A DNA stretch of 64,000 nt from Natronobeatus ordinarius (GCF_024362485.1 NZ_CP101457.1:1-64000); one strand, 5' to 3'; positions 1 through 18,346 are shown, counted from the stretch's first letter. Numbers and translations: made by a program. Notes: generated from the sequence alone by a model not told the origin.

Positions 1-2
1 AC

Positions 3-737
3 GAGGAGAACGAGGTCATTGATAGCGATCAGTTCGATGTGGAGCGCGCCCGTGCAAGTGAGGACACGCGCGAGGCACTCGCCTGGCTGCTGGCGAGCCG
101 ACTCAACACCATCACGGCGACGAACATGATCGCCCATGGGGTCGACGTCAATCGATTCAATATGATGACGTTCTTCGGGATGCCTCGTGGGACTGCTGAA
201 TACATCCAGGCAAGTTCCCGTGCAGGACGGTCCCGTCCTGGCCTCGTGTTCAACGTTGCACATCCCATCCGGGAGCGTGACCTGAGTCACTACCACTTCT
301 TCGAGAAGTACCACGCCTTCCTCGATCGGCTGGTCGAGCCCGTTCCGATCAACCGCTGGGCGAAAAACAGCGTCAAACAGACCCATCCGGGTCTATTCAT
401 GGGGCTGCTGCTCAACCACTATATGTACCGCGAGGGCGCCGGGAACCTCTACTTCGGTGATAACGCCGAGGAATTCGCTAACTCCGTCGACGAAAAAGAG
501 CTCCGCCAGCAGATGCTGGGAATGTTCGGTGATCCTGACGACCACGAGGAGTTCCAGGGCGATATCGAGGATCTTACGAAAGAGGCTCTCTCACAGCTCC
601 GGCTCGACGACGACCAGTGGACGAGCGGCCGCATCAAGCGCTCGCCGATGCGCAGCCTTCGGGACGTCGACGAGCAGCTCCAAATCCGGTCTGAGTACCG
701 CTACCGAGAAATCTTCGAAACCATGGACAACCGGTGA
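3..737 (+). CDS. drmA: DISARM helicase DrmA, C-terminal part (cut by window edge)
   Basis: The reading frame is open to the window edge, so only the last ~245 residues are seen. They hold the end of an SF2 helicase second RecA domain: motif V-like TNMIAHGVDVNRF, then motif VI-like EYIQASSRAGRSRPG. A helical C-terminal tail rich in Asp and Glu follows. It ends 6 bp before the DUF1998 gene, which is the drmA-drmB order of DISARM. In DISARM, DrmA and DrmB form a complex that binds and remodels incoming DNA. The family call rests on motifs V/VI plus gene order; motifs I-IV lie outside the window. A DUF1998-partner helicase of another system is the only real alternative. Confidence 0.85.
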   Translation, partial: EENEVIDSDQFDVERARASEDTREALAWLLASRLNTITATNMIAHGVDVNRFNMMTFFGMPRGTAEYIQASSRAGRSRPGLVFNVAHPIRERDLSHYHFFEKYHAFLDRLVEPVPINRWAKNSVKQTHPGLFMGLLLNHYMYREGAGNLYFGDNAEEFANSVDEKELRQQMLGMFGDPDDHEEFQGDIEDLTKEALSQLRLDDDQWTSGRIKRSPMRSLRDVDEQLQIRSEYRYREIFETMDNR

Positions 738-743
738 TCAACA

Positions 744-2705
744 ATGAGCATGCAACGTAGCCGCCACCAGATCCTGTATCAGTTCCTTCCCGGGAACACG
801 TTCGACTACAGCGACAAGCGCGGCATATGGCAGGTGAACCGCCTCGAAACCACTGACGCAAGCGGCCAGGTCGACCGGGAGTACATCGTCGAGCGTGTGT
901 TCGCCAGGGCGAAGAACTGGGACGGCGGTGAGCAGGGGTTCACGTCGAACCGACCCGCCCACTACGACTTTGCCGAGCCCAAGGAGGTTCGTGCCCGTCC
1001 GTTCCCGACGACTTTCTACTGCACGAGCTGCCAGAAGGTTCACGGGTACTACTCCGCGGATGACCTCAAGGGGAAAAACCAGGCGCTGAAGTGCCAGAAA
1101 TCGGGCTGCAACGGAGACCTGAAGCAGTTCCAGTTCGCCAGCGTCCACAGCTGTGGGGAGATCAGGCGGCTGTACCCCCAGAAGTGTCCCGAGCATGGCG
1201 ACCAACATATCGTCCTCGACACACAGGATAGCCAGCGTGCCCAGAACTTCAAATGGCGCTGTGACATCTGTGGGTGGGACACTCGGGTGAGCTACTATCA
1301 GAACTGTGGCTGTGACTACGTCCCGCCGGCCTACGAGCATGATCCGGACGAGGACAAGATGTACACCACCGTCCATCGTGCAGGCTCAACGTACTACCCG
1401 CACTACCTGACGACGGTGAACCTGCACACCTCGGGAATTGGGCACCTCCGCGGAAGCGAGGACGGGTCACGTAAGGCACTCGCCAAGCACCTCGGGCTCT
1501 CTGATTCCCCACTGCAGGCCGTCGACATGAACGAAGGGATTGAGGGAGTCGAAATAGATGATGACCGGAAGATCGAAGTCTACCAGACCGAACCCGAGGT
1601 CGAGTCGCTGGCCAAGGCCGAAGAGTGGCTCCGCGAGCACGGCGAGATTGACAGCCAGACTGTCGGTGAAGCCATCGCAGACCTGATCGACCTTAACGCG
1701 GGCGAGGACGCTGAGGAGATGACCGACGCCGGCGACGAACTCCTCCAGTACGTGCTCAGTCTCGAGGAACTCACCGCCCACACAATCGACGAGCTGGAGG
1801 GCGACGCTCGCAACGAGGGGTTCCCACAGAAGGCCGATAAGATCTCAACCTACTCCAACGATATCGAGCGTCTCGGGTTGAGGGAAGTTCGCGTTATCGA
1901 GGATTTCCCTGTTCAGACGTTCGTCTACGGGTACACGCGTGGTAGCCGTGAGGAGGATGAAGCTCGACTGAACGCCTTCTCCCAGAACGCAAGCAGCGGC
2001 GACGGGACCCCGATCTTCGTCGATACCTCAGAAACCGAGGCGACACAGTTCGACCTCGATCCAGCCGCGGTGTTACTCTGGCTGGCTGTCAACATCCCAG
2101 GAACCAGTGACGAAGACGAAGTTCGGGGGAACATCACGCTTCCTACACTCCCAGAGAACCCGGAGGAGGCCGACATCGATCGAGCACGGGCGGCTATCAA
2201 AGAGCTCTCGGAAGCTGAACAGTGGGCGTTCCTGCTAAATCATCTCGACCCCGTCGACCAGTACGGCCGATTCGAGACCACCACTGATGACACCGTCGAG
2301 GGTCAGGTGACAAAGTACGTCTTCGAGATGCTTCACACGCTCTCACACATCCTGCTGAAGCAGGCGAGTACCATCAGCGGGTTCGACCGGACGAACCTGA
2401 GCGAGTTCCTCTTCCCGCGTGCGCTGTCCGTGGTGATATACACCAACAACCGGGAGGATTTCAACATCGGTGGAATGACCACCATGGTCGAACAGCAACT
2501 GGACGATCTCCTGGGCCAGGCGAAAGCCCACGGGAACGAGTGCATGATGGACCCAGTCTGCTCACAGCGTGACGGAGCCTGTCTATCCTGTCTCCACGTG
2601 AGCGAGATCAGCTGTTCGTACTTCAACCAGGTCCTCTGTCGGGACTACCTGTTCGGGAGCAGACCCAACACGGACCGATCTATCGAGGGGTTCTGGCGAC
2701 TGTAA
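744..2705 (+). CDS. drmB: DISARM protein DrmB (DUF1998)
   Basis: A 653-residue protein lying 6 bp after drmA and 24 bp before drmC, so clearly one transcript. Cysteine pairs near residues 92-180 (CTSC, CQKSGC, CDICGW, NCGC) suggest zinc ribbons. The C-terminal third is the DUF1998 module, with HTLSHILLKQAS and a late cysteine cluster (CMMDPVC, CLSC, C.YFN..LC) that probably holds zinc. DrmB is a core DISARM subunit acting with DrmA. An acidic linker of ~150 residues (from about residue 250) splits the two cysteine-rich parts. DUF1998 also occurs fused to MrfA-type helicases, as in the helicase at 30190; here it is free-standing, as expected for DrmB. Confidence 0.9.
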   Translation: MSMQRSRHQILYQFLPGNTFDYSDKRGIWQVNRLETTDASGQVDREYIVERVFARAKNWDGGEQGFTSNRPAHYDFAEPKEVRARPFPTTFYCTSCQKVHGYYSADDLKGKNQALKCQKSGCNGDLKQFQFASVHSCGEIRRLYPQKCPEHGDQHIVLDTQDSQRAQNFKWRCDICGWDTRVSYYQNCGCDYVPPAYEHDPDEDKMYTTVHRAGSTYYPHYLTTVNLHTSGIGHLRGSEDGSRKALAKHLGLSDSPLQAVDMNEGIEGVEIDDDRKIEVYQTEPEVESLAKAEEWLREHGEIDSQTVGEAIADLIDLNAGEDAEEMTDAGDELLQYVLSLEELTAHTIDELEGDARNEGFPQKADKISTYSNDIERLGLREVRVIEDFPVQTFVYGYTRGSREEDEARLNAFSQNASSGDGTPIFVDTSETEATQFDLDPAAVLLWLAVNIPGTSDEDEVRGNITLPTLPENPEEADIDRARAAIKELSEAEQWAFLLNHLDPVDQYGRFETTTDDTVEGQVTKYVFEMLHTLSHILLKQASTISGFDRTNLSEFLFPRALSVVIYTNNREDFNIGGMTTMVEQQLDDLLGQAKAHGNECMMDPVCSQRDGACLSCLHVSEISCSYFNQVLCRDYLFGSRPNTDRSIEGFWRL

Positions 2706-2729
2706 CAATCCCGCATCTCGTTTCAACCT

Positions 2730-3659
2730 ATGTCCAGCCAACACCCAACCATTGATCGGACGCTGGCAATCGCCGATATTGCGGAGCATGATGAGACACT
2801 TCTGGACGAACTGGAGGGTCTCCTCCTCGTCGCTGCGGGCCGAGGTGAGCGTCTCTCTCCTGCTGCTGTTGCCCGCGATACGAGACTGAGCCGGGAAGGG
2901 GCAACCGACCTCTTCCGCCAGTTTCTGCAGTGCGATGTTGTCCAGCGAGAGTCTTACGGAACGGACCTGGTGGAGACCCGTTTTAGGGTCGACGCCACAC
3001 GAACCCGCCAGGTACTCGAGCATGCTCGTGAGTCGATTCGCATACTGGCGGCCCATCAAGAACGAGTCCCGACGACAACGGTAACGCCACTGATCACATT
3101 CCCCGACGATCCTGCATTCAGCGCCACGACTGCCGCTTCGTTCGGGATGGATGGACTGCTCTCGACGCTGGCCAGCAAGATCAAACGCTGTGACAGCGAG
3201 ATTATCCTGCTCTCCCCGTTTTTCGAGGGAGAAGGCTTCGGTCGTCTCGCCGACGTACTCCTCGATGCACTCGAACGGGGGGTCGAACTGACGATTGTCA
3301 CGCGCTATCTGTCGGATACAGACTCGCACAACTACCACGTCATCCAGTCGTTCATGGACCGCGTTGCGGAGCAGGAGGTCGCTTCACGCGTCTCGCTCGT
3401 CGACTATACGGTCTGGGACGATAGCATCCCGATGGAGAAGCGAACGCAAGATGGGGAGAACCCGCGGTTTACCCTCCACGCAAAGGTCATGCTGTTCGAC
3501 TCCCAAGCTGCGTATGTTGGAAGCGCTAACGTCACCGATTATGGGTTCGATCGGTACCTCGAACTCGGCGTGCTTCTCGAAGGTGCGAAGGTCACACCCT
3601 TCCGAGAGCTCTGTACCTTCCTCCTTGACTCCTCAGGTGCGGTTCGTGTCGATATCTGA
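2730..3659 (+). CDS. drmC: DISARM phospholipase D-like protein DrmC
   Basis: A 309-residue protein. The N-terminal ~110 residues look like a winged-helix region (LSPAAVARDTRLSREGATDL). The rest is a PLD-fold domain with one clear HKD motif, HAKVMLFDSQAAYVGSANVT (HxKx4D followed by GSAN), near residues 248-267. PLD nucleases usually need two such motifs, so either a dimer forms one site or the second motif is degenerate. It is the third gene of the drmA-drmB-drmC run. In published work on DISARM, DrmC was the least essential subunit. No membrane segment is visible; it probably acts in the cytoplasm on nucleic acid. Confidence 0.88.
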   Translation: MSSQHPTIDRTLAIADIAEHDETLLDELEGLLLVAAGRGERLSPAAVARDTRLSREGATDLFRQFLQCDVVQRESYGTDLVETRFRVDATRTRQVLEHARESIRILAAHQERVPTTTVTPLITFPDDPAFSATTAASFGMDGLLSTLASKIKRCDSEIILLSPFFEGEGFGRLADVLLDALERGVELTIVTRYLSDTDSHNYHVIQSFMDRVAEQEVASRVSLVDYTVWDDSIPMEKRTQDGENPRFTLHAKVMLFDSQAAYVGSANVTDYGFDRYLELGVLLEGAKVTPFRELCTFLLDSSGAVRVDI

Positions 3660-3822
3660 GTGGGTCACTTTCTCCGGTCAAGCATCAGACGATATCGTCG
3701 TGAAGACGACATCCGATCGCGGGATGGCATCGTGTTTCACGGTCGTTGAAAAGTATTAACTGTTTGCAAGATAGCGACTACGCTATAGCTTCGCTGTCGT
3801 ACCCATCCCTTTAGCCACCAAA
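3660..3822 (+). promoter_or_regulatory. Intergenic promoter region before drmMI
   Basis: A 163-bp gap in an otherwise tight operon. It holds an A/T-rich block (AAAAGTATTAAC near 3750) that could be a TATA element, followed by the small inverted repeat ATAGCG-ACTA-CGCTAT. This suggests that the methylase can be transcribed separately from drmABC, as would suit a system that must methylate before it restricts. No start site can be fixed by eye. Confidence 0.4.
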
Positions 3823-6800
3823 ATGACGGACTCCAGCACATACCGGACGAACCGCGACCTGTTCTCAAACCATTACCTGGACGACCATCTCCGAGACACG
3901 GAGCCCTGGAACGAGGTTCCAGACGCCGATGTTGAGGCGGCCTACGAGGAGATCACCGATCTCTGGACAGAAAAACAGGAACGTGTCGACGACTACAACG
4001 AGGCACAGTTAGAGAGGAACTTCATCCGGCCAATCTTCGACATCCTCGGTATCCCGTTCGAAATCGAGGAGACGGTCATGCGAAACGCTCGGCGACCCGA
4101 CTACGGATTCTTCCCAAGCGAGGAAGCAGCCGACGCTGCATTCGATCGCGAGAATTTCTACGAGGAAGCGACCGCCGTCGCCGACGCAAAGCGATGGGGA
4201 CGAAAGCTCGACACACGTGGGGAGGAAAAACGTGACTTCGAGAACCCGAGCTATCAGATCCACCGCTATCTCCAAGAGACGCCAGCCCAGTGGGCGGTCC
4301 TCACGAACGGCGAAAAGTGGCGGATCTACTACGGGCCAACGAGTCACCGACTGGACTCCTACTACGAGATCGACCTTCCTGAACTCCTCGACATCGTCGA
4401 TAGTGAGAGTGATTTTGAAGCGTTCAAAGAGTTCTACCTGTTCTTCCGCCAAGAAGCGTTCCTCCCCGATCACACCGGCGACTGCTTCCTTGACGACGTA
4501 TACGACGAGTCGAGCATCTTCGCCGAGGAACTGGGTGAGGACCTCCAGGAAAACATCTATGAGGCGATTCGCGTGCTCGCAGAGGGGTTCCTCGACACGA
4601 ACGACGACCTCGATGAGGGCGATCTCGAGCTGATCCACGACAGTTCACTCATCTACCTTTACCGGCTCATCTTCGTCCTTTACGCCGAAAGCGAGGGACG
4701 GAACCTGCTCCCCACGGACAACGAGATCTACAGCGGGAGTTACAGTCTGAACGAACTGAAACAGACGGTCGTCGAGAACCGTGACGCGACCCAGCAGCAC
4801 TACCAGACCTGGCAGACGGACCTCTGGGACCAGCTTGAGGAGCTCTTCATCCTGATCGACGAGGGTAGCCAGGGGCAGGGTATTCCAAAGGAGGACCTCT
4901 ACATTCCCGCGTACAACGGTGGGCTATTCAGGTCGGACCCAGACGACAGTGACAGCGTCGAGGCGCAATTCCTCTCAAATCATGAAGTCGGCGACGCGTA
5001 TCTCGCGGAAGTCATCGAACTTCTCACCCGTCACGAAGCCGACGAAGGGAAGGGGAAGGTGTTCGTCGATTACTCCTCGCTGGACGAGCGAAACCTTGGT
5101 TCCATTTACGAGGGACTGCTAGAGTACAAACTCGACGTGGCCGACGAGCCGTTGACCGTCGACGACGGTGAGTACACCCCCGCCGGGGAGGGCGATGACA
5201 TCACCATCGAGGCGGGAGAAGTGTATCTTCGAACCGACGACGGGGAGCGCAAGGCCACAGGATCGTACTATACACCCGAGTACGTCGTCGAGTACATCGT
5301 CGACGAGACGCTCGGGCCGCTGGTCGACGAGATACGCGCGGACCTCATGTCCCAGAGTGCGGACACGACTCATAGCCGAGAAGGTGGATTTGCCGACGAG
5401 TTCGCCGAACGGATTTTCGACCTCACTGTGTTGGACCCCGCGATGGGAAGTGGGCATTTCCCGGTCAACGCGGTGGACTACCTCGCCCGAAAGATCATCG
5501 ACGCCCAGGAGAAGCAGGACCGGCAGGCGATTGACTCCGAGGACGCCGAGGTGCGAGCACCGACGACGAAGGAGGGCGAACTACGGGACATCAACTGGGC
5601 CCGACGCAAAGTTGCTCAGCGCTGTATCTACGGCGTCGACGTCAATCCGCTCGCAACCGAGCTAGCAAAGGTCTCTCTCTGGCTGCGGACGCTCGCGGCC
5701 GAGCAACCGCTTGCGTTCCTGGACCACCACCTCAAGACCGGAAACTCGCTCGTCGGGAGTGACATCGAGGATGTGCTGTCCAACGGCGACGGTGCCAAGA
5801 CTGAAGACGGCCAGCTAACACTCCAGCAGTCGCTCGACCACACGCGCAAGCGTGCGATGGAGCACGTCACCGACCGCTTCCAGGACTTGCTCAACATTGA
5901 CAACGAGACGCTGGAGGATGCAAAGGAGATGGAAGCGGTCTACGACGACGTGCGTGACGACCCCCTGTACCAGAAGCTCCTTGCGATGGCTAACGTCCAC
6001 ACCGCTGACGCGTTCGGGCTTGATATACCCAGTGACGCCGACGAGCGAATGGCCCGCGCGCTCCACAGTGACACGTGGGAGAACATCGAAGAACAGGACT
6101 GGTTCAAGAGCGCGCAGGCGATGGCCGAGGAGGAACGCTTCTTCCACTGGGAACTGGAGTTCCCGATGGCGTTCTACGATCAGGATGGAGAGCGGAAAGC
6201 GGATGCCGGGTTTGATGCGGTTATTGGGAATCCACCATATGTGAACTCGAAATATCTTGCCAGCTCAGAGAAGAGCTACTTGGAGAACCGATATACCTCT
6301 ACTACTGGTCGATGGGATATTTACTTGCCATTTACAGAATTGGCGGTGGAAATCTCGACAGGGGTTGTCTCTTTCATCGAGCCTTCTATGTTCTTCAGAA
6401 GGGAATATGGTGAGGGTTTGCGTCAATTTATCACCGAGAATGCGACGGTAACTGAGATAGTTGATTTCTCTGATTTGACAATATTTTCAGGTGTCACTAA
6501 CTATGTGTCAATCTTAACACTCGACAAATCAGATATGGACGAGTTTGAGGTATTAGTTCCCAGTACGCCTCACGATTTCGCCAATTCTGAAAAAGATGAT
6601 ATTCATGGGTATTCCCTTCGAAATTCTGATCTTGGATCGGACGCTTGGCAGGTAATCCCCGCAGAGGTAGTACAAGTGATGGAGTCTTTGCCAACTGATT
6701 TCTCGAGATTAGATGAAGTCACAACGTCAATTACAGAAGGAATTCACTCTGGTCGGGATAGCGTGTTCTACGTAACTCAGGAAGTCATAGACTCGTGGGG

Positions 6801-7968
6801 GCTTGAGACTGAACTCCTCCACCCTTTGCTTAAAGGAAAGCATGTACACCGATATGAACCCTTAGAAACAGAGCTTTTCGTCATTTATCCATATGATGGC
6901 GAGAAGGTGATTTCTCCACAGGAGATGAGGGGAGAGTATCCTAACACTTGGGAATACCTCAACCACCATGAAGATGACATCAAGGGGCGGGAATATCTAA
7001 TGAACACATCCGGTTACGTTTGGTACGAACTATGGCGAAAGCGAGAGCGAGAGATTTTCTCGAATCCTAAGATTCTGCTCCCAATGATATCAGACGGGAG
7101 TAACTTCACTGTTGATCGAGGTGAGAAGGAATTTTACTTTAATACCAAGGTGAAGAGTATCCGAATGACGGATGATGCTAGTCTTCCAATCGACGATTTA
7201 TTAGGATTGCTTAACTCCAAGCTACTGGAATTTATTTATAAAGGAATTGCACCGCCTAAGGATGGAGGCTTTCGGGCATACACCACAGGTTTTCTCTCCG
7301 AACTCCAAGTCCCCGACTCAAAGGTTCCTGAAGTTGGTGAAAGTGCCAGAGAGCTGATTGAATATAGATCTGAAAAAGATAAACTTAATCTCTCATTGGT
7401 TGACTACCTCGGTAACTACGAAGAGGGCCCGAACCTCCCCGATATCGGCATCTTCCAGCCCACTAACCCCGAGTATCTCGACGCCACCACCGAGGACTAC
7501 GACAAACTCCAGATCGAACGAGCTCGCACGAAGCGCGACAGATCGACAGTCACCATCGAGGCGACAGCGCGCTACAAGCCAGAGGACGAAGAAGAGTTCG
7601 AGACCGACACCTATGGTTACACGGAGACAGAGTTCTTCAAGGCGTTCACGCTCACGAACCTGAGCGAGGAGGAGGCCACGCTGGTTGAGGCATTCGTCCC
7701 TGTCGCCGTCGATGAAGAGATTGCGAACTTCTCTGATAACGCCACAAAGACAATATCTCTGCTGGACCGGCTGAAGGCGATGACGCTGCCCGACCCCGAC
7801 GATGTCAAGGACGATCTCCGGCGGTACATAGAGAACCGTGAACGCGCCGACGAACTCGACCAGAAGATTGAGAAGACAGACCAGCTCATCGACGAGATCG
7901 TCTACGACCTCTACGATCTGACCGACGAAGAAATCAAGATTGTAGAAGAAGCCGTCGCCGACGACTGA
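3823..7968 (+). CDS. drmMI: DISARM class 1 adenine methylase DrmMI, type IIG-like
   Basis: A 1,381-residue protein. Residues ~60-160 resemble a PD-(D/E)XK nuclease-like domain (RRPDYGFF, then AVADAKRWG). Residues ~480-810 are an N6-adenine methylase: GSYYTPEYVVEYI, motif I TVLDPAMGSGHF, GVDVNPLATELAK, and catalytic motif IV IGNPPY near residue 802. Residues ~810-1190 form the presumed target-recognition region, and a coiled-coil tail ends the protein. This layout is that of Eco57I-like enzymes and of DrmMI. It would mark host DNA as self. The recognition region (6,200-7,400) has visibly lower GC and different codon use from the rest, suggesting domain exchange. BREX PglX has a similar layout, but no other BREX gene is present. 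Confidence 0.87.
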   Translation: MTDSSTYRTNRDLFSNHYLDDHLRDTEPWNEVPDADVEAAYEEITDLWTEKQERVDDYNEAQLERNFIRPIFDILGIPFEIEETVMRNARRPDYGFFPSEEAADAAFDRENFYEEATAVADAKRWGRKLDTRGEEKRDFENPSYQIHRYLQETPAQWAVLTNGEKWRIYYGPTSHRLDSYYEIDLPELLDIVDSESDFEAFKEFYLFFRQEAFLPDHTGDCFLDDVYDESSIFAEELGEDLQENIYEAIRVLAEGFLDTNDDLDEGDLELIHDSSLIYLYRLIFVLYAESEGRNLLPTDNEIYSGSYSLNELKQTVVENRDATQQHYQTWQTDLWDQLEELFILIDEGSQGQGIPKEDLYIPAYNGGLFRSDPDDSDSVEAQFLSNHEVGDAYLAEVIELLTRHEADEGKGKVFVDYSSLDERNLGSIYEGLLEYKLDVADEPLTVDDGEYTPAGEGDDITIEAGEVYLRTDDGERKATGSYYTPEYVVEYIVDETLGPLVDEIRADLMSQSADTTHSREGGFADEFAERIFDLTVLDPAMGSGHFPVNAVDYLARKIIDAQEKQDRQAIDSEDAEVRAPTTKEGELRDINWARRKVAQRCIYGVDVNPLATELAKVSLWLRTLAAEQPLAFLDHHLKTGNSLVGSDIEDVLSNGDGAKTEDGQLTLQQSLDHTRKRAMEHVTDRFQDLLNIDNETLEDAKEMEAVYDDVRDDPLYQKLLAMANVHTADAFGLDIPSDADERMARALHSDTWENIEEQDWFKSAQAMAEEERFFHWELEFPMAFYDQDGERKADAGFDAVIGNPPYVNSKYLASSEKSYLENRYTSTTGRWDIYLPFTELAVEISTGVVSFIEPSMFFRREYGEGLRQFITENATVTEIVDFSDLTIFSGVTNYVSILTLDKSDMDEFEVLVPSTPHDFANSEKDDIHGYSLRNSDLGSDAWQVIPAEVVQVMESLPTDFSRLDEVTTSITEGIHSGRDSVFYVTQEVIDSWGLETELLHPLLKGKHVHRYEPLETELFVIYPYDGEKVISPQEMRGEYPNTWEYLNHHEDDIKGREYLMNTSGYVWYELWRKREREIFSNPKILLPMISDGSNFTVDRGEKEFYFNTKVKSIRMTDDASLPIDDLLGLLNSKLLEFIYKGIAPPKDGGFRAYTTGFLSELQVPDSKVPEVGESARELIEYRSEKDKLNLSLVDYLGNYEEGPNLPDIGIFQPTNPEYLDATTEDYDKLQIERARTKRDRSTVTIEATARYKPEDEEEFETDTYGYTETEFFKAFTLTNLSEEEATLVEAFVPVAVDEEIANFSDNATKTISLLDRLKAMTLPDPDDVKDDLRRYIENRERADELDQKIEKTDQLIDEIVYDLYDLTDEEIKIVEEAVADD

Positions 7969-7986
7969 CCTATATTTACCACAACA

Positions 7987-9030
7987 TTACAGCCACGACA
8001 GCCCGGCGTTCAGCTCCTCGAGGAATCCCGGTCGCACCTGAACGCCCGGCGGGAACGCGATCGACTCGCCCTCTTTCTCGGTGATCGTCTCGCGGAGGAA
8101 CGGATGTGCAGGCTCGAAAGACGGGCTCGTCCGGATCCGATACTCACTGTCGACCGTGAACAGCGCGGCGTCGAACGCCCGGTGATGGAGCGAGTTCAGC
8201 ACGAGCACGTTCCCCGAGTGCTCTGCGAGGTCGGGGTGCTGGCTCCGCGGCAGTATGTGCGCCAGGTCGAGTAGCGACTCCTCACGGATACCAGTCATCG
8301 GGCAGGCATGCCCGTACCGTTCGAACGTCTCTGTCCGGAACGCTTTACTCACCATTGTCTCGGTCGTTTCGTAGCGCCGAACCTCTCCTTCCGTATCGAG
8401 CGGCTCGCCAGTCGGCCACTGAGAGACCTCTCCTTGCCTGACCCACTGCTTCCAGACCTCGGGCGCCTGGTCGTCGTTGTTCGTCTGCGCACGCTCGTGG
8501 AGCCACGAGACAGGAACCGCTTGTGTGTTGAGAATTGAGAAGTGAAAGCGATAGTTCGGTATCTGTTCTCCCGAATCGTCCTGATAGGTGTGTACCTCAA
8601 AGTGATCCGGGACACAAAGCCCACAGAACTCGACGACGCCGCTCTCTGGCTTCCGGAACACCAGCACGGGGGGTACCTCCTCACGCCGTCCCGAGGCAGC
8701 CCTGTCGAACGCTTCCTTGATCTTCGTGTTCTGCGCCGAGTCGTCGTACCGGAGACCCCTCTTCGCGTCGCCCCAGTAACTCACGTACCCTGCGTTGACC
8801 GCCAGTGTATCTTCCCACGGATCATCGTGCTGTGAGACGCCTGCATCGTTGGAGACGAGAATTAACGCGGCGGGCATCTCTGAGCGATCTGCGCTGAGGT
8901 CGCGGATTCCACCTGTGTTTTTGATTCCACTACCCAGTGGGCCGCGGATCCACCGCAGGAACTGGTCTTCCGCGTTCCTGAAACTCCCTGTGTCCCGATA
9001 GGCTTCGCCGACGCGGAACGCTCGCTGCAT
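7987..9030 (-). CDS. HNH endonuclease, McrA-like, antisense in DISARM island
   Basis: A 347-residue protein on the opposite strand, converging on drmMI with an 18-bp gap. The C-terminal ~110 residues carry an HNH nuclease: CPMTG, then LDLAHILPRSQHPDL, NVLVLNSLHHRAFD (DLAHI..N..LH..FD). The N-terminal ~200 residues are an unknown domain that may recognise DNA or modified bases, as in McrA-type modification-dependent enzymes; that is inference. Start ATG at 9030 lies beside the divergent promoter of the next gene. HNH genes are not core DISARM members, so this is either an accessory gene or an independent type IV-like system nested in the island. Confidence 0.75.
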   Translation of the reverse strand: MQRAFRVGEAYRDTGSFRNAEDQFLRWIRGPLGSGIKNTGGIRDLSADRSEMPAALILVSNDAGVSQHDDPWEDTLAVNAGYVSYWGDAKRGLRYDDSAQNTKIKEAFDRAASGRREEVPPVLVFRKPESGVVEFCGLCVPDHFEVHTYQDDSGEQIPNYRFHFSILNTQAVPVSWLHERAQTNNDDQAPEVWKQWVRQGEVSQWPTGEPLDTEGEVRRYETTETMVSKAFRTETFERYGHACPMTGIREESLLDLAHILPRSQHPDLAEHSGNVLVLNSLHHRAFDAALFTVDSEYRIRTSPSFEPAHPFLRETITEKEGESIAFPPGVQVRPGFLEELNAGLSWL

Positions 9031-9173: not shown

Positions 9174-9689
9174 ATGGGTTCAGATTCGGGGAATGTCGCT
9201 GAATTTCTCAAACAATACGCCTTCGAGCCGTCTGCAGACTACACAGTAGAAAGCGCGGAGAGGGGAGTGGAAAAGCTCGAATCAGGATGCAGTGCTTTTC
9301 TCGAGAAAGTGGGCTATGATTCTGATCGAATTGAGCACCGGGTGTATCTGGACCCGGAAGGATCGTCAGATCTCGATCAGTTTGTCGCTGATTTCGTGAT
9401 CCGGCAACGAACAACCGAATCAATCCGTATCCTCGCGTGCACGTTGATGGGTGAGAGGCATGATGTTAACCATGAGAGGAACTCTGTAACCTCAATGGAC
9501 CTTGCTTCTCGGTACTTCGATTATTTCGGTACTCTCGATTACCGCTTTTTTATCATATTCACAAACTATTATCTAATCATAGCAGAGCCGGATGGGTCTC
9601 TTGATGTATACGCCTATGACCGATTGACGAAGTCAGAAGCTGAAGAAATAAGGACACAGATCAGCCCTCTTCGAGAGCACGGTGACTAA
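9174..9689 (+). CDS. Unknown 171-aa protein between HNH gene and drmD
   Basis: I do not recognise this family. The protein is acidic and soluble, with an Asp-rich N-terminus and a C-terminal stretch of aromatic beta-like sequence (DYRFFIIFTNYYLII) that suggests a small alpha/beta fold. An A/T-rich element (CATATTTATG, about 30 nt upstream) suggests a leaderless transcript starting at this ATG. It ends 42 bp before drmD and lies on the same strand, so it may be co-expressed with it. Its GC content looks lower than that of drmD. Its constant companion role in DISARM is unproven. Confidence 0.6.
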   Translation: MGSDSGNVAEFLKQYAFEPSADYTVESAERGVEKLESGCSAFLEKVGYDSDRIEHRVYLDPEGSSDLDQFVADFVIRQRTTESIRILACTLMGERHDVNHERNSVTSMDLASRYFDYFGTLDYRFFIIFTNYYLIIAEPDGSLDVYAYDRLTKSEAEEIRTQISPLREHGD

Positions 9690-9731
9690 TTTGCGGAAAG
9701 TTAAGTCCGGCCGCCACATCTTGATATATCA

Positions 9732-12674
9732 GTGTCTGATTGCGCGTGTAATTTCGATGTCGGGGACCGCGTCAGCTTCGCGGGCGGTGAAGGCGAGCTC
9801 GTCAAGATCAATCATCGACCATCGGGCCAGTGTCTGCTCCACATCCTGACCGACGGCGATGACTCGAAGAAGCTCCCTGCTGCAGTTGTTGACCTGATAG
9901 ACAGCAGCGACGCGCTGCTCGAGAAGGGCGAGTTCGATGATCCGGAACGGTTCAACCTCCGTGCCAAGGCAGCCGAACTAGATCTCGCCCATCGCCAGGA
10001 CCGATTCGTCGCGCTAGAAAACAACCGCATCGATATCGCTCCCCACCAGGTGAAGGCTGCACATGAGATCCTCACCTCTTACGACCATCGCTACCTCATC
10101 GGCGACGAGGTGGGCCTCGGGAAGACGATCGAGGCAGCGATCGTCATCGAGGAACTCGCTGCCCGCGGACAGGCAGATCGCGTGCTCATCGTCGCCCCTG
10201 CGCCGCTTACCACGCAGTGGCAGGAAGAACTCCGCGAGAAATTCGACACGAACTACGTCATCTACGACCGCGATTACGTCGAGGCCAAGAAGGACGCCTA
10301 CCCTGCCGAGAACGTCTGGTCGCACGAAGACCGTATCATCACCTCCATCGACTTCGCCAAACAGGACGACATGCGTTCGGCGCTGAAGAACGTCCAGGAG
10401 GACTGGGACATCGCCCTCTTCGACGAGTCCCATCACCTCACCGCTCGCCGTGAGGGGAAGCGCGGCGTCGACAAAACGGACCGATACAGGGTTGGGGAGG
10501 TGGTTTCTGAAACCTCCGACGGGTTGCTGTTCCTGACCGGAACACCCCATAACGGGAAGCGTGATCAGTTCTACTTCATGATCTCGCTACTCGATCCCTA
10601 TCGCTTCCGCGACGAACACGGTGTCGACAAAGAGGGACTGCAAGACCTGATGATCCGTCGATTGAAGGACGAGATGTACGAGGCGGACGGGTCGCCAATG
10701 TTCCCCGAGAAGAACATTCAGACGCTCCCGGTTGGGTTCACAGAGGAGGAACGGCAACTCTACGACGACATCACGGAGTACATCACCGAGCACTATAACC
10801 TCGCCAGCCGGGAAGAGAACGACGCTGCGGGGTTTGCAATGGTCCTCTACCAGAAACGCCTCGTCTCCTCGATCTACGCGATTCAGCAATCCCTCCGGAA
10901 CCGAATGGAGTCCATCAAGGCGGGCGGTGCCGACCCGAGCGACCTCTCTCCAGTTACGAAGAGTCTGCTCGATGAGTATCGGGAGGACCCCGAGATGCTC
11001 ACGGAGGCACAGCGTGAACACGTCGAAGAAGAGCTTGGAGGTGCCGTTGCCTCTGGTGATCCGGAGAAGATCGAAGAAGAACTCTCGATTGTCCGTGACC
11101 TCTACAACCAGGCAAAGTCCATTCAGGTGGACTCAAAGGCAGAAAAACTGCGGGAGTATGTCGATGGGATTCTGGAAGAGGACCCTGACGAGAAAATACT
11201 CATTTTTACTGAATACACAGACACGCTCGAGTACCTCAAGGGCCGGGTGTTCGGAGACAGGGATATCGCGGAAATATACGGCGATCTCACCCAGTCTCAG
11301 CGCCAGCAGCAGTTCAAGAAGTTCGAAGGCTCGGCGAACGTGATGCTGGCAACGGATGCCGCTCGGGAAGGACTGAACCTGCAGTTCGCGCACCTCATGG
11401 TGAACTACGACCTGCCCTGGAACCCGACCCGGATCGACCAGCGTATTGGACGGCTACACCGCTACGGGCAAAAGGAGACTGTCGAAATTCGGAACCTGTT
11501 CTTCAAGGACACACGTGAAAGCATAATTCTCGAGAGCCTTCTTGAGAGAATCGACGAAATCGAGGACACACTCGGAATGAGTTCGGACGTCCTCGGGCTC
11601 GTACTCGAAGACGTCGATCTAGAGGAACAGATCATGTCCGCACTCGCGACCGGACAGAGTCCCGATACCGTTGTCGACGAGCTCGAGGCCATCGTCGAAG
11701 ACCAAGAAGAGGCCGTCCAGCGCGTCGACAAGGAACTCCTCATCCGAGATAAGTTCGACCTGAGCAAGGAAGACCGCGATATCCTCGATATCGTCGAGGA
11801 GAGCGCTACTGATACGGTCAGTGACGAGGACATCGAATATCTTGTCAGAACCGTCTGTCAAGAGTTCGGTGGTAGCCTCGAAAACGTTCGTCCCGGTCCT
11901 GCCGAAGACGGTGGTGATGTGTTTGATCTGATCGTTCCTGATCGAGTTACCAGTGACGATGTCGCGAGCCGATATGACGGTGCAACCTTCGACCGTGAGA
12001 ACGCGCTTGCAGACGAAGATCTCGAATTTATTACACTCGACCACCCCGTGGTCCGGGCAATGATGGCGTACTGTCTTGATACAGATGTTGTTGGTGGACA
12101 GACGGCTATCCTCACTGGGGGAGAAGAACTGAACACACCAGGACTCCTTTGTCATTACCGGATTGGCTATCTCTCAGGAACAGGTGATACGGTGACTGAG
12201 AAACTCGCACAGGTCTACGTCACCCCCGATGGCACGATTCAGACCGAGAACATCCACATTACGGGTGGACTGCCCCCATCAGCTATCGACGGACATCCCG
12301 CAATTGGTACTGTGGCCGCGCAGGCCGAACGGCTCGTCTCGAAAGCAGACGATGTGGCCTGGGAACTCATCGACGACCTCGCACAAGAAGCACGCGCAGA
12401 CCGAGAGCGAGAAGTCCGCATTCGTCGGGAGCACGCCAAGAACTATTTCGAGTATCGGATGGAAGATCTCGAAGAACGAATCGAGCAATTCGAAAAACGT
12501 GACCGTGCAGGTGAAGATATGAGCGCAGTACTCGCAAAGCACCGCAGCGAGCTTGCTGAATTACGAGAGGAGAAAAATGCAGAGATGACCCGGCTTGATG
12601 GGGAAGAACAGGTCGTTCCCGATGAACCCGATCTCGTGAATATGGCCGTCGTCGTCGACGCCTTCAATAACTGA
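9732..12674 (+). CDS. drmD: DISARM SNF2-family helicase DrmD (copy 1)
   Basis: A 980-residue protein starting at GTG. Residues ~7-55 form a small SH3/KOW-like module (FDVGDRVSFAGGEGELVKI). The SNF2/RapA-like ATPase follows: Walker A GDEVGLGKT near residue 123, DExH box FDESHH near 231, FLTGTPHNGK, then the second RecA domain with ILIFTEYTDT, LATDAAREGLNLQFAH and RIDQRIGRLHRYGQ. The tail (from ~860) is coiled coil. DrmD is the marker helicase of class 1 DISARM. The next gene, drmMII, starts 48 bp downstream. A close paralogue follows at 14263. RapA-type remodelers share these motifs, but the neighbourhood decides for DrmD. Confidence 0.87.
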   Translation: MSDCACNFDVGDRVSFAGGEGELVKINHRPSGQCLLHILTDGDDSKKLPAAVVDLIDSSDALLEKGEFDDPERFNLRAKAAELDLAHRQDRFVALENNRIDIAPHQVKAAHEILTSYDHRYLIGDEVGLGKTIEAAIVIEELAARGQADRVLIVAPAPLTTQWQEELREKFDTNYVIYDRDYVEAKKDAYPAENVWSHEDRIITSIDFAKQDDMRSALKNVQEDWDIALFDESHHLTARREGKRGVDKTDRYRVGEVVSETSDGLLFLTGTPHNGKRDQFYFMISLLDPYRFRDEHGVDKEGLQDLMIRRLKDEMYEADGSPMFPEKNIQTLPVGFTEEERQLYDDITEYITEHYNLASREENDAAGFAMVLYQKRLVSSIYAIQQSLRNRMESIKAGGADPSDLSPVTKSLLDEYREDPEMLTEAQREHVEEELGGAVASGDPEKIEEELSIVRDLYNQAKSIQVDSKAEKLREYVDGILEEDPDEKILIFTEYTDTLEYLKGRVFGDRDIAEIYGDLTQSQRQQQFKKFEGSANVMLATDAAREGLNLQFAHLMVNYDLPWNPTRIDQRIGRLHRYGQKETVEIRNLFFKDTRESIILESLLERIDEIEDTLGMSSDVLGLVLEDVDLEEQIMSALATGQSPDTVVDELEAIVEDQEEAVQRVDKELLIRDKFDLSKEDRDILDIVEESATDTVSDEDIEYLVRTVCQEFGGSLENVRPGPAEDGGDVFDLIVPDRVTSDDVASRYDGATFDRENALADEDLEFITLDHPVVRAMMAYCLDTDVVGGQTAILTGGEELNTPGLLCHYRIGYLSGTGDTVTEKLAQVYVTPDGTIQTENIHITGGLPPSAIDGHPAIGTVAAQAERLVSKADDVAWELIDDLAQEARADREREVRIRREHAKNYFEYRMEDLEERIEQFEKRDRAGEDMSAVLAKHRSELAELREEKNAEMTRLDGEEQVVPDEPDLVNMAVVVDAFNN

Positions 12675-12721
12675 TCACAGTTCCGAACGACTTTCCTCAC
12701 TCCCACCGTTTCGTTCGCACA

Positions 12722-14110
12722 ATGGATTCGGGACCATCTGCTATCGATCTCTTTTGTGGCGCTGGGGGGCTCACCGAAGGACTCAGACGGGCTGGATACG
12801 ACGTACGCTGGGCGATCGATTATGACGAATCTGCCGTCGAAACATACCGTGAGAACCACGGCGATCACGCTATTCGGGCAGATATCCGTGAAACGCACCC
12901 TGCGGAAGATGGTCCCGATATCGAGCCGGGCGATCTTGACCTCGTTGCGGGAGGGCCACCCTGCCCATCGTTCTCTACGATCGGTCGTTCAAAGCTCGGC
13001 TCTCTCGAGGATCGCTCCGTCGATGAGGACGATCGGAACGTTCTGTATCTTGATTTCCTCCGGTACGTCAAGCATTTCCAACCACGGGCGTTCGTCATGG
13101 AGAACGTTCCCGGAATGTTGACCGACACAGTCACTGTCGAGTCAGACACAGTCCAAGAGTCTCTCCCGATCGGGCCAGGACAGGAGGTTGAGCAGTCCCC
13201 GGTTGGTGAAGAGGTTCCTGTTACAGAGATTATCCTTGAGGAAATGAAGGGGCTTGGCTATACTGTAGACTGGTTCCTCGTCGACGCAGCGGATTTCGGT
13301 GTTCCCCAGCATCGAGAACGGCTCTTCTTCATCGGCCGGCGAACAGGAAAGGCTCTACCGGAACTCACCCGGTGGTCCACCCACCGAGAGCCGACCGACC
13401 GAGAGAAAGAGCAGCAGATGCAGATTCGTCCCGAACTGAGGGACAGCACTGATGAAGCCCAAGAGACGTTCAATACTGGTTTATCCTCTGTCCTCCCCCC
13501 TTTTGAGGCCGATCGGGAATACAGACATCCCTACCTCACCGTCGCAGACGCAATTATGGACTTGCCGCCGATTTCCCCTGGTGGGGGGATGCCACCGAGG
13601 CAAGCAACTGAGTATACGCTTCCTCCCGTCTCCCCGTATCAGGAATGGGCACGAAATATCACAGATGGCGAGGACTGGGAGGATCAGCCCCTTCGTAACC
13701 ACGACGCACGCTGGCACAATCATCTCGACCTCTCGATATACAAGCTGCTTGGGCACGGCGTCGGCTGGAACATCGGTCAGGTAAGTACTGGGCTCCAACC
13801 ATACCGCGACGACGTGTTTCCCGATAAGTACAAGAAGCAGAATCCCGCGAAGCCAGCGTCGACAATTCTCGCACATATCCAAAAGGATGGGCACATGTTC
13901 ATCCACCCGTCGGAGGCTCGATCGCTCTCTCCTCGAGAAGCGGCTCGTCTACAGTCGTTCAAGGACACATACTGGTTCCCGGAAAGCCGGACAAACGCGT
14001 ACCGCCTGATCGGCAATGCGGTACCACCTCGACTCGGGGAGGCAGTCGGTGTTGCGATTCGCCAGACAATTCTTTCAGATAGGCACTCAAGCACAGCCAG
14101 TACATCGTGA
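12722..14110 (+). CDS. drmMII: DNA cytosine-5 methyltransferase DrmMII
   Basis: A 462-residue C5-cytosine methylase with all main motifs in order: motif I AIDLFCGAGGLTEGL, motif IV GGPPCPSFSTIG with the catalytic Cys, motif VI FVMENVPGM, motif VIII VPQHRERLFFIG, then a recognition region, and motifs IX/X (SPREAARLQSF, GNAVPP). In class 2 DISARM this enzyme marks host DNA. Here it sits between two class 1 helicases, in a locus that also carries the adenine methylase drmMI. It may therefore be a second self-marking activity with its own recognition sequence. Length and motif order are normal, so the enzyme should be active. Confidence 0.9.
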   Translation: MDSGPSAIDLFCGAGGLTEGLRRAGYDVRWAIDYDESAVETYRENHGDHAIRADIRETHPAEDGPDIEPGDLDLVAGGPPCPSFSTIGRSKLGSLEDRSVDEDDRNVLYLDFLRYVKHFQPRAFVMENVPGMLTDTVTVESDTVQESLPIGPGQEVEQSPVGEEVPVTEIILEEMKGLGYTVDWFLVDAADFGVPQHRERLFFIGRRTGKALPELTRWSTHREPTDREKEQQMQIRPELRDSTDEAQETFNTGLSSVLPPFEADREYRHPYLTVADAIMDLPPISPGGGMPPRQATEYTLPPVSPYQEWARNITDGEDWEDQPLRNHDARWHNHLDLSIYKLLGHGVGWNIGQVSTGLQPYRDDVFPDKYKKQNPAKPASTILAHIQKDGHMFIHPSEARSLSPREAARLQSFKDTYWFPESRTNAYRLIGNAVPPRLGEAVGVAIRQTILSDRHSSTASTS

Positions 14111-14221
14111 CGAGTACTTGTCTTATTTATAAGGGTCCGAAATCAGCTTGCTAACAGTGAGTTGGCTACTTGAGGTCAAAATACGATTGCGAAATACTGT
14201 CCAGAGCGTACTCATACTATC

Positions 14222-14262
14222 TGCCAAAGGGTTAATTATACCTGAATAACAATATTTGCAGA
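14222..14262 (+). promoter_or_regulatory. Probable promoter of the second drmD
   Basis: The 152-bp gap after drmMII is A/T-rich. The block GGTTAATTATACC lies ~27 nt before the GTG start at 14263, at the right distance for a haloarchaeal TATA box and a leaderless transcript. This suggests that the second drmD has its own promoter. Confidence 0.5.
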
Positions 14263-17200
14263 GTGTCAGACGAGAATCCGTTCAAACCCGGGGACAGGGT
14301 ATCGTTCTTCGGTGGAGAGGGAATCGTTGTTCGCGTAGATGATGATTGTCTCCTTATTCATACGGATGATGGTCGCATAGTTAAACAGAAACCGGATCTT
14401 CCCCTGGTGTCAAAGATGGTTGATTTTGAAAGCGGTGAGAAGGTACAGTTCCCCGGCGGCGAGGGTGAAATCATAAAGATCGAAAAGCGCCCTGATCGTG
14501 CCGATCTGCTCTACGTCCACACAACTGATGGCGGCCTCAAGACGGTACCTGCCGACAAGAAAGGAGTCGAACCGTTAGCGAGTATTGCAGACCAGCTCTC
14601 ACTTGAGCAATTCGACACGGGATCGAGGTTCGATCTCCTCGAAAAAGCCGTCCGTTTGGATCTCGCCTACCGATTTGATCGATTTATATCACTCGAGGGA
14701 AACCGGATTGATGTGACGCCCCATCAGGTCGAAGCAGCTCACGAGATACTGAGTTCGCACGATCAGCGCTACCTCATCGGCGATGAGGTCGGGCTCGGGA
14801 AGACCATCGAGGCAGGAATCGTTATCGAAGAGTTGCTCGCCCGCGGTCGGGCTGAGCGGGCCCTGATCGTCACTCCCGCCTCGCTCAAAACGCAATGGCA
14901 GGAGGAGATGAAGGACAAGTTCGATCAGGAGTACGTCATTTACGACCGCAATTACGTGAATAGCGTCTGTCAAACGGCTTCAAAAGACGAGGTGTGGGAA
15001 CAGGACGATCTAATCATTACTTCGATCGATTTTGCCAAGCAGGATGATATGCTCGAAGCCCTCGAGAATACCGAGTGGGACATTGCAGTCTTCGACGAAG
15101 CTCATCACCTGACTGCTCGAAAAGAGAACGACGGGTCGCTCAGTAAAACAGACCGATACAATGTCGGCGAGGCTGTTTCTCCCAACACTGATGCACTGCT
15201 CTTCCTGACCGGAACACCGCACAAAGGGAAACACGATCAGTTCTATCTCATGATCGATCTCCTGGAGCCATACCGCTTCGAGGATGAACACGATATTTCC
15301 CCAGAGAAGCTCCGAGATGTGATGATTCGACGTCTCAAGAGTAATCCGAATATGGTTCACTCTGATGGCTCTCCGATGTTCCCGGAAAAGAAGATCCACA
15401 CGCGCCCAGTCGAGTTCTCTGAACAGGAACACAGGCTCTATGAGGACATCACCGATTATCTCCAGAATCACTATCGACTGGGTGAAGAACAGGAATCGCA
15501 CACAGCTGGGTTTACGATGGTTATCTACCAGAAGCGACTGGTCTCCAGTATCCGTGCAATACAGCGCTCACTCGAGAAACGAGCTCGGATTTTGCGAAAT
15601 GGTGGCCAGAATGGGAGTCTCTCACTGGTAGTCAAGAAGCTGCTGCCACAGTATCGAGAACGACCAGAAACTCTCACCGATAAGCAGCGTGAGCGTATTG
15701 AAGATGAGTTGCAGGAAGTTTCTGGCGGTCAAGGTCCCGAACATTTAAAGAAGGAGCTGGAGGTTCTCGAAGGACTTATTGAGCGCGCTCGATCGATCAA
15801 TGTGGACTCGAAAGCTCGAGAACTTCGAGAGTTTGTGGAAGGTCTGCTTTCGAAGGACTCGGATGAGAAGGTTCTCGTATTCACCGAATACACGGACACG
15901 CTCGAGTATCTCCGTGACGAGGTTCTCGATGATCACGATATCGCCCAGATCCACGGATCGATGGGACAACAGGTTCGTCGAGAACAGGTCGAGAAATTCC
16001 GCAACGAGGCGAATGTGATGCTGGCGACCGATGCGGCCAGGGAGGGTATCAACCTCCAGTTCGCGCACATCATGATAAACTACGACCTGCCCTGGAACCC
16101 GATCCGTATCGACCAGCGGATGGGTCGTCTCCATCGATACGGCCAAACCCGAGACGTCCATATCCACAACCTCTTCGTAAACGATACTCGAGAAAGCGAG
16201 ATTCTCGAACAGCTGATCGAGAAAATCGACCGGATCGAAAGCGATCTCGGAATGCACTCGGACGTACTGGGAATGGTACTCGACGACAGTGATTTCGACC
16301 TCGAAGAGCGGATTATGGACGCGGTTACGAACAATGAGTCGAGTAAGAAAGTCGTCGACGATCTCGATAGAATTATCGAAGAACGCAAAGAGGCAGTGAA
16401 AACGGTACAGGACAACTTCCTCATCAGTGACCAGTTCGGAGAGTCCGATCTCGAAGAGATACAGGAGTTGATCGAGGAGAGCAGAAAGGATCACGTCGGT
16501 CAAAGCGAGGTTCGTGAGCTCCTCGAGCTGTTTTTCGTGGAGTTTGATGGAGAAATCTCAGAACGGAGTGACAGTCGCTACAGCGGAGAAGTGTTCTCAA
16601 TCGATGTCCCGGGGGTCATCGAACTGAGTAGCGACGAGATTCGTGGTTCGTATACGCGAGCAACGTTCGACCAAGAGATTGCGAAAGAGGACAGTAACCT
16701 GGAGTTCCTGTCGGTGAATCACCCCGTCGTACAGTCCATTGTTGAGTACTGCCTCGACGGGAACTGGATCGATGGGCGAACGGTAGTGAAACGTACCGCT
16801 GACGAGTCGGCTGAACTAGGTCTCAAGTGTAACTTCCGGCTCAGTTATGAAACGGCAGACGGGAGGAACGAGACTGAGGAATTCGTATCTCTGTATGTAA
16901 GCGGTGATGGGGACGTCTGGTCTGAAATACCCGATAGCGATAGTTCGATTTCACCGGACAAAGTCGGGGATCACCCGGAGATCGATCCGATAACAAAGAA
17001 CGCCAGAGAGCTGATTGATGTAGCCAAGAGAGAAGCACAGCACCAAGTTGAGGCGATGGCTGAAGAGGCAGAGAAGGAAAAAGAAGAAAGCGTTGACATC
17101 AAGCGTCAGCACGCGGAGCGGTATTTCGAAAACGCCATTGACACCTGGGAAACCCGTCTGGAGGGGTATCAACGGGATCACCAGAAAGAGAAGAATATGG

Positions 17201-17349
17201 AACTCCCGATTCGGAACGCGAAATCCAAACTTAAGGAGCTTCGTGAGCAGCGAAAACACGAATTCGAGCAATTACGAGAGGAAGAATCGGTTCTCCCGAA
17301 AGCCCCAGAACTGGTCAACGCTGCCGTGATAGTTCCAGAAAACACATGA
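14263..17349 (+). CDS. drmD: Second DrmD-like SNF2 helicase (paralogue)
   Basis: A 1,028-residue paralogue of the gene at 9732, with the same motifs in the same order: GDEVGLGKT, FDEAHHLTA, FLTGTPHKGK, VLVFTEYTDT, LATDAAREGINLQFAH, RIDQRMGRLHRYGQ. Unlike copy 1 it carries two tandem N-terminal KOW/SH3-like modules: FKPGDRVSFFGGEGIVVRV and ESGEKVQFPGGEGEIIKI. The C-terminal coiled coil is also kept. Start GTG at 14263 follows a plausible TATA box. The two proteins have diverged throughout, so this is not a recent duplication; separate substrates or a hetero-oligomer are possible. No drmA/B/C follow, so the island ends here. Confidence 0.82.
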   Translation: MSDENPFKPGDRVSFFGGEGIVVRVDDDCLLIHTDDGRIVKQKPDLPLVSKMVDFESGEKVQFPGGEGEIIKIEKRPDRADLLYVHTTDGGLKTVPADKKGVEPLASIADQLSLEQFDTGSRFDLLEKAVRLDLAYRFDRFISLEGNRIDVTPHQVEAAHEILSSHDQRYLIGDEVGLGKTIEAGIVIEELLARGRAERALIVTPASLKTQWQEEMKDKFDQEYVIYDRNYVNSVCQTASKDEVWEQDDLIITSIDFAKQDDMLEALENTEWDIAVFDEAHHLTARKENDGSLSKTDRYNVGEAVSPNTDALLFLTGTPHKGKHDQFYLMIDLLEPYRFEDEHDISPEKLRDVMIRRLKSNPNMVHSDGSPMFPEKKIHTRPVEFSEQEHRLYEDITDYLQNHYRLGEEQESHTAGFTMVIYQKRLVSSIRAIQRSLEKRARILRNGGQNGSLSLVVKKLLPQYRERPETLTDKQRERIEDELQEVSGGQGPEHLKKELEVLEGLIERARSINVDSKARELREFVEGLLSKDSDEKVLVFTEYTDTLEYLRDEVLDDHDIAQIHGSMGQQVRREQVEKFRNEANVMLATDAAREGINLQFAHIMINYDLPWNPIRIDQRMGRLHRYGQTRDVHIHNLFVNDTRESEILEQLIEKIDRIESDLGMHSDVLGMVLDDSDFDLEERIMDAVTNNESSKKVVDDLDRIIEERKEAVKTVQDNFLISDQFGESDLEEIQELIEESRKDHVGQSEVRELLELFFVEFDGEISERSDSRYSGEVFSIDVPGVIELSSDEIRGSYTRATFDQEIAKEDSNLEFLSVNHPVVQSIVEYCLDGNWIDGRTVVKRTADESAELGLKCNFRLSYETADGRNETEEFVSLYVSGDGDVWSEIPDSDSSISPDKVGDHPEIDPITKNARELIDVAKREAQHQVEAMAEEAEKEKEESVDIKRQHAERYFENAIDTWETRLEGYQRDHQKEKNMELPIRNAKSKLKELREQRKHEFEQLREEESVLPKAPELVNAAVIVPENT

Positions 17350-17612: not shown

Positions 17613-17636
17613 TCACGGTCTCTGCGAGGACGAACC

Positions 17637-18328: not shown

Positions 18329-18346
18329 TCGACTTAATCCCCAAAC

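What the first reader, a model, noticed from the sequence alone, without database searches (positions are those of the whole stretch)
1..17349. DISARM island that joins class 1 and class 2 hallmarks
drmA, drmB and drmC are followed by drmMI and drmD (class 1 markers) and by drmMII (class 2 marker), all on one strand, with a second drmD closing the island. Published class definitions use one methylase type per locus. Two self-marking enzymes with different base targets would mean that restriction needs two marks, or that two systems have merged around one drmABC core.
Basis: partly seen in the sequence, partly recalled or inferred. Interest (0 to 1): 0.75.

Follow-up and report, generated by a model that had tools for sequence, protein, structure and literature searches.

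The report
Three-methylase DISARM of salt-loving archaea
A plasmid of a salt-loving archaeon carries a DISARM-type antiviral system that marks its own DNA with one adenine and two cytosine methylases; having both kinds of methylase was already known from a bacterial DISARM, but the conserved second cytosine methylase, joined to a DNA-glycosylase-like domain, appears to be undescribed.

Summary
They are not all on one strand: an AspBHI-type HNH nuclease gene lies inside on the minus strand. The window is cut at the origin of a circular 133.6-kb plasmid, so half the system was unseen: the rest of drmA, a GHKL ATPase, a Mig-type HhH-GPD glycosylase and a second m5C methylase (746 aa). The premise "one methylase type per locus" is contradicted by the literature: the Serratia DISARM has both. 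The class 2 marker drmE is absent. It is no chance neighbourhood: all 14 sampled haloarchaeal genomes with a close drmB also carry drmA, drmMI, drmD and both m5C methylases, in at least three gene orders. The second drmD is a separate, optional paralogue. The new part: the second m5C methylase has an N-terminal domain with the HhH-GPD glycosylase fold, its catalytic lysine missing. Best reading: a haloarchaeal class 1-type DISARM with three self-marking methylases, modular target recognition and deamination repair. New variant of a known kind.

The parts
3..737 (+). drmA, C-terminal part (helicase C domain); the gene starts at contig C2:130491 and crosses the contig origin, 1274 aa in all
   Evidence: PDB match to Serratia DrmA for the 94% homologue
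744..2705 (+). drmB (653 aa; MZB/DUF1998 region)
2730..3659 (+). drmC (309 aa; PLD nuclease with HKD motif)
3823..7968 (+). drmMI: PglX/type IIG-like m6A methyltransferase, 1381 aa, NPPY motif; target-recognition region aa ~801-1200 hypervariable between relatives
7987..9030 (-). mRE: AspBHI-N (SRA-like) + HNH modification-dependent nuclease, recurrent companion on the opposite strand, usually between drmMI and drmD
9174..9689 (+). small protein of unknown family (171 aa), seen in three of the closest loci
   Evidence: no family match
9732..12674 (+). drmD1: the conserved SNF2/RapA-type helicase of the system (980 aa)
12722..14110 (+). m5C methyltransferase, DrmMII-type, 462 aa, all motifs intact
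14263..17349 (+). drmD2: second SNF2 helicase (1028 aa), 50% identical to drmD1, in a separate clade; optional accessory in a variable slot
17350..18346 (.). repeats (TTCATATCGCACACGGGGTGTGGGGG type, both orientations), probable plasmid replication origin beside orc1/cdc6; boundary of the island, not part of the system

Best explanation
This is a plasmid-borne, divergent class 1-type DISARM restriction system of haloarchaea whose conserved set is drmA, drmB, drmC, drmMI, drmD and two cytosine methylases; a Mig-type HhH-GPD glycosylase, a GHKL ATPase and an AspBHI-type nuclease join part of the loci. Most likely mechanism: DrmMI marks the host with m6A at a lineage-specific site, and the two m5C methylases (which co-evolve as a pair) mark it with m5C. 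The DrmAB helicase pair, with DrmD and the PLD nuclease DrmC, acts on incoming DNA that lacks the marks. The HhH-GPD protein removes T from T:G mismatches left by deaminated m5C, and the AspBHI-HNH enzyme cuts virus DNA carrying foreign modifications. Shown here: gene content, co-inheritance in different gene orders, intact methylase, PLD and Mig-like catalytic motifs, hypervariable DrmMI target region, predicted HhH-GPD fold of the second m5C methylase's N-domain. Inferred: every activity, the need for both marks, and the roles of the GHKL ATPase and the glycosylase-like domain.
For: Gene identities. Co-occurrence: all 14 sampled genomes (of 294) with close drmB (54-100% identity) carry drmMI, drmD1, the m5C methylase and MT5B; MT5B is in 4 and the m5C in 12 of the other 280 (Fisher 1e-20 and 3e-17). 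One contig in 12 of 14; the other two are split at contig ends. Two more complete sets on named plasmids, DL31 phalar01 and Halarchaeum CBA1220. At least three gene orders keep the set. Distances of drmA, drmC, drmD1, MT5B, m5C and drmMI correlate with drmB (r 0.98, 0.90, 0.80, 0.69, 0.58, 0.51; permutation P <= 0.001). DrmMI target region 12-35% identical against 58-97% elsewhere. HhH protein: best PDB match Mig of Methanothermobacter (1KEA, 2.6e-35), catalytic Tyr and Asp kept in all 9 proteins compared. DISARM mechanism and self-marking: PMC9142583.
Against: DrmA/B/C/D fall below NCBIfam equivalog cut-offs, DrmA scores better against DrmAS than DrmAL, and the EVE-like N-terminal domain described for class 1 DrmA was not detected (low-confidence model), so placement inside class 1 rests on gene content. 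The distance correlation is weakest for drmMI and m5C, so methylases are partly exchanged between loci. GHKL and HhH are absent or decaying in about half of the loci. No methylome, expression or virus data exist here.
Confidence: 0.72

Rival explanations
1. Two or more independent systems sit side by side: a drmABC-drmMI-drmD DISARM and a separate cytosine-methylase cassette (two m5C methylases, HhH glycosylase, GHKL ATPase) that only shares the defence island.
For: The cassettes exist apart: GHKL-m5C-MT5B without drmABC in G092; HhH+m5C pairs in G055 and G156; MT5B or HhH with distant DISARM in G115, G259 (weak DrmE) and G139. m5C and MT5B correlate better with each other (r 0.93) than with drmB (0.58, 0.69).
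Against: The two m5C methylases are in 14 of 14 genomes with this core across several families and gene orders, and the m5C gene mostly sits directly next to drmD1; MT5B is almost always with a drmABC core (17 of 18 genomes have a drmB relative).
Confidence: 0.2
2. One reading: a recent merger of a class 1 and a class 2 DISARM around one drmABC core, with a duplicated drmD.
For: DrmMII-type methylase next to drmMI and drmD; two drmD genes; DrmA scores better with DrmAS (395 bits) than with DrmAL (259 bits).
Against: No drmE; the set is old and shared by 14 genomes; drmD2 is in a separate clade from drmD1 (100/99 support) and lacking from most relatives; an m5C methylase is published for a bacterial DISARM that also has the m6A one (PMC9142583).
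Confidence: 0.05
3. Decaying defence island: a collection of defence genes with no joint function.
For: Several accessory genes are broken in relatives (GHKL split in G034, GHKL remnant in DL31, mRE fragments in G093 and G257, broken drmD copy in G103).
Against: Core genes drmA, drmB, drmMI, m5C and MT5B are full-length in all 14 genomes by longest open frame (drmC in the 13 where it could be read, drmD1 in 13; one search reports an in-frame stop in the m5C of G286 and G015 at or near the match ends) with conserved motifs.
Confidence: 0.03

Closest known systems
DISARM of Serratia sp. SCBI (Bravo et al. 2022, PMC9142583)
   Same: drmA and drmB as separate genes, drmC PLD nuclease, and both an m6A and an m5C methylase in the operon; DrmA and DrmB here match only the Serratia proteins in PDB by sequence
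   Different: distant sequence; here a second m5C methylase with a glycosylase-like domain, a Mig-type HhH-GPD protein, a GHKL ATPase and an AspBHI-HNH nuclease accompany the set
Class 2 DISARM (drmMII, drmA, drmB, drmC, drmE)
   Same: m5C methylase of DrmMII type with drmABC
   Different: drmE absent; drmD and drmMI present. Haloarchaeal loci with weak DrmE matches (G115, G259) belong to a different drmAB branch of about 30% identity
ARMADA (Bell et al. 2025, PMC12458937)
   Same: PglX-like methylase and BrxHII/RapA-like helicase with a YprA-family helicase; drmMI-drmD pairs without drmABC are also seen here (G034 C46, G074, G217)
   Different: in ARMADA the DUF1998 part is typically fused to the helicase and a nuclease domain is fused; here drmA, drmB and drmC are three genes
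Mig.Mth T:G mismatch glycosylase (PDB 1KEA)
   Same: HhH-GPD fold, catalytic Tyr and Asp, Fe-S cysteine pattern; that it too is encoded beside an m5C methylase gene is from memory
   Different: here part of a DISARM locus; activity not tested
Prokaryotic MORC / paraMORC GHKL ATPases of restriction systems (PMC2292703)
   Same: GHKL motifs (DNGKG, GQYGMG) in an operon with a superfamily II helicase
   Different: no sequence match to a solved structure found; only a weak HATPase_c_3 match

Membership tests
DISARM (any class) | drmA helicase and drmB DUF1998 protein encoded by separate adjacent genes, with drmC PLD nuclease | tested here: met
   but below NCBIfam equivalog cut-offs
DISARM class 1 | drmD SNF2 helicase and drmMI adenine methylase present (PADLOC rule quoted in PMC9252829) | tested here: met
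DISARM class 1 | drmE absent | tested here: met
   no DrmE match among the genes scanned in and around the locus
DISARM class 1 | EVE-like N-terminal domain in DrmA (PMC12458937) | tested here: inconclusive
   AF2 model of DrmA 1-274, pLDDT 64, no significant fold match; the region before the helicase is about 94 aa shorter than in Serratia
DISARM class 2 | drmE together with drmMII | tested here: not met
   drmMII-type gene present, drmE absent
DISARM | restriction of unmethylated incoming DNA | not testable with these tools
   needs plaque, transformation or methylome data
ARMADA | YprA helicase fused to the DUF1998 region, nuclease fused | tested here: not met
   drmA, drmB and drmC are three separate genes
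Mig-type T:G glycosylase (HhH protein, C2:126671-127480) | HhH-GPD with catalytic Tyr and Asp and C-x6-C-x2-C-x5-C | tested here: met
Active HhH-GPD glycosylase (MT5B N-domain) | HhH motif GxG with catalytic Lys/Tyr and catalytic Asp | tested here: not met
   fold met, but the GVG-K motif is degenerate and the Asp is not kept in all members

The most novel reading that the evidence does not exclude
The 746-aa enzyme fuses a base-flipping HhH-GPD domain to an m5C methylase and makes the cytosine mark conditional: the domain inspects or edits the target base (unmethylated, methylated or deaminated), so that DISARM self-marking is proofread or incoming DNA is attacked by base excision rather than by strand cleavage alone.
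Probability: 0.12. Interest if true: 0.75.

Novelty: new variant of a known kind. Interest (0 to 1): 0.45.

Why it matters
It shows that in haloarchaea multi-methylase DISARM is the rule for one branch, not an accident, and offers a natural system to ask whether DISARM must read one mark or several. The pairing of m5C methylases with deamination-repair glycosylases, one of them apparently fused, links self-marking with repair of its mutagenic cost. Two m5C methylases that co-evolve may mark the two strands of an asymmetric site, which methylome sequencing can test directly.

Tried and rejected
(1) 'Class 1 plus class 2 hybrid': rejected, no drmE, and the DrmMI+DrmMII combination is published. 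(2) drmD2 as a recent copy of drmD1: rejected by identity (50%) and tree. (3) GHKL as a DrmE homologue because it sits where DrmE-like genes sit upstream of drmA: no sequence similarity. (4) HhH-GPD domain in MT5B by sequence profile alone: inconclusive (hhalign probability 13%, one of 12 members with a weak Pfam hit at 0.019); supported only by the predicted fold. (5) EVE domain in DrmA: inconclusive. (7) Genome-collection scan with the drmB alignment gave 8 named loci, all apparently the same as genomes already found.

Full report
What is in the window. The window is the first 64 kb of contig C2, a 133,578-bp second replicon of a 4.2-Mb genome. The named relatives are Halobacteria; several close carriers are Natrinema (Natrialbaceae), in the same family as the host. 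The contig is circular: the drmA frame runs without a stop from C2:130491 over the contig end into window 1-737 and gives 1274 aa. Reading from drmA the genes are drmA, drmB, drmC and drmMI on the plus strand; an AspBHI-N/HNH nuclease on the minus strand; a small protein; drmD1; an m5C methylase of DrmMII type; and drmD2. After a repeat-rich region that looks like a plasmid origin comes orc1/cdc6. Upstream of drmA, outside the window, lie a GHKL ATPase (C2:127669-130494, plus, overlapping drmA by 4 bp), a HhH-GPD protein (C2:126671-127480, plus) and a second m5C methylase, here called MT5B (C2:124289-126529, minus, 746 aa).

What the literature says about two methylases. Bravo et al. (PMC9142583) describe DISARM operons as holding 'DrmMI and/or DrmMII' and report both an m6A and an m5C methylase in the Serratia DISARM, with DrmAB ATPase activity reduced by 5-methylcytosine. 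The combination as such is therefore known. PADLOC's type II rule needs drmE (PMC9252829), which is absent here.

Is it one unit? In an even sample of 294 genomes of the class, 41 have a drmB relative and 14 a close one (54-100% identity). All 14 also have drmA, drmMI, drmD, the m5C methylase and MT5B. Among the other 280 genomes MT5B occurs in 4, three of which carry a distant drmAB (Fisher test). The genes are together on one contig in 12 of the 14; in G093 and G286 they stop at contig ends. Two further complete sets lie on named plasmids (halophilic archaeon DL31 phalar01, Halarchaeum sp. CBA1220 pCBA1220-03). Gene order differs: in one group (the window, Natrinema, Halarchaeum, DL31) the order is MT5B minus, [HhH], [GHKL], drmA, drmB, drmC, drmMI, [mRE minus], drmD1, m5C; in a second group (Halorhabdus salina, Halomarina oriensis, Salinarchaeum laminariae and others) drmMI and drmD1 run divergently upstream of drmA while MT5B, with or without HhH, follows drmC; Halorubrum cibi has a third order. 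Keeping the same set through rearrangement argues for joint function. Protein distance matrices correlate with drmB for every core gene tested, and m5C with MT5B better than either with drmB (r = 0.93), which suggests that the two cytosine methylases work as a pair, for instance on the two strands of an asymmetric site (inference).

Modular origin. drmMI-drmD pairs without drmABC (G034 C46, G074, G217), m5C+HhH pairs (G055, G156) and a GHKL-m5C-MT5B cassette (G092) occur on their own.

Second drmD. drmD2 is 50% identical to drmD1 and groups with copies in G093 (87%), G103 and G210, apart from drmD1 and from the stand-alone drmMI-linked helicases (tree). It sits beside the m5C gene here, in G103 and in G210; about 4 kb beyond MT5B in G034; and far from drmD1 on the same contig in G093. 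DL31 has a drmD-like remnant downstream of its m5C gene, and other relatives have other genes there (a transposase in G034, unknown proteins in G093 and G257). It is an optional accessory.

New features. MT5B residues 1-315, modelled from the 90% identical Natrinema gari protein with six relatives (best model pLDDT 76, the other four 54-62), match HhH-GPD DNA glycosylases: the 50 best PDB matches are all of that superfamily (endonuclease III-1, E 6.7e-5, probability 1.0). The catalytic lysine position is Asp or another residue, the GxG of the hairpin is degenerate, and the catalytic Asp is not kept in all members; activity is therefore doubtful and a base-reading role likelier. The free HhH protein is closest to Mig of Methanothermobacter with Tyr and Asp intact, so repair of T:G mismatches from deaminated m5C is the natural role; a bacterial DISARM-like locus in Roseomonas has m5C methylases and Vsr nearby, a functional parallel. 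DrmMI is conserved except for aa 801-1200, the target-recognition region, where identity falls to 12-35%, the usual sign of specificity switching in restriction systems. The AspBHI-type nuclease is found, whole or as a fragment, in 9 of 14 loci and in both named plasmids, mostly between drmMI and drmD on the opposite strand; beside resident m5C methylases it must spare the host's own marks (inference).

Limits. No methylome, expression or virus data. The sample is 294 of the held genomes. Family assignment of DrmA-D is below curated cut-offs, so 'DISARM' rests on gene content, partial profile matches and the exclusive PDB sequence match to Serratia DrmA and DrmB. The claim that the MT5B domain fusion is undescribed rests on one literature search of an open-access library with no hit.

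Noticed in passing
window 17634-18307: Repeats of TTCATATCGCACACGGGGTGTGGGGG type in both orientations (one pair 27 nt, 100% complementary) between drmD2 and orc1/cdc6: a probable replication origin, so the DISARM island abuts the plasmid's replication module.
   Followed up: partly
window 20942-25954: 1670-aa protein with sacsin-type N-terminal domain, PADLOC TmtA match (3e-68): probably a further defence gene.
   Followed up: no
window 25937-26866 and 30190-32628: ArdC-N/IrrE-like protein (minus strand, weak matches) and an HRQ1/MrfA-type helicase with MZB domain (plus strand).
   Followed up: no
L120 (Roseomonas plasmid) 1013-14864: drmAB-like pair with a sigma-70 factor, m5C methylases and Vsr mismatch endonuclease: a bacterial parallel to m5C plus HhH-GPD; a sigma factor also lies next to drmB-like genes in L119 (Burkholderia).
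   Followed up: no
L070 2350-6333 and L072 2312-6289: 1325-1327-aa proteins with weak DrmE_C matches upstream of a distant haloarchaeal drmABC that also carries MT5B (and HhH in L072): the MT5B cassette is shared between different DISARM branches.
   Followed up: partly
L066 12875-17699: Three consecutive genes of 507-554 aa next to a distant drmABC, mostly without family match (one weak LmuB hit); three genes of similar size stand next to drmABC in L069.
   Followed up: no
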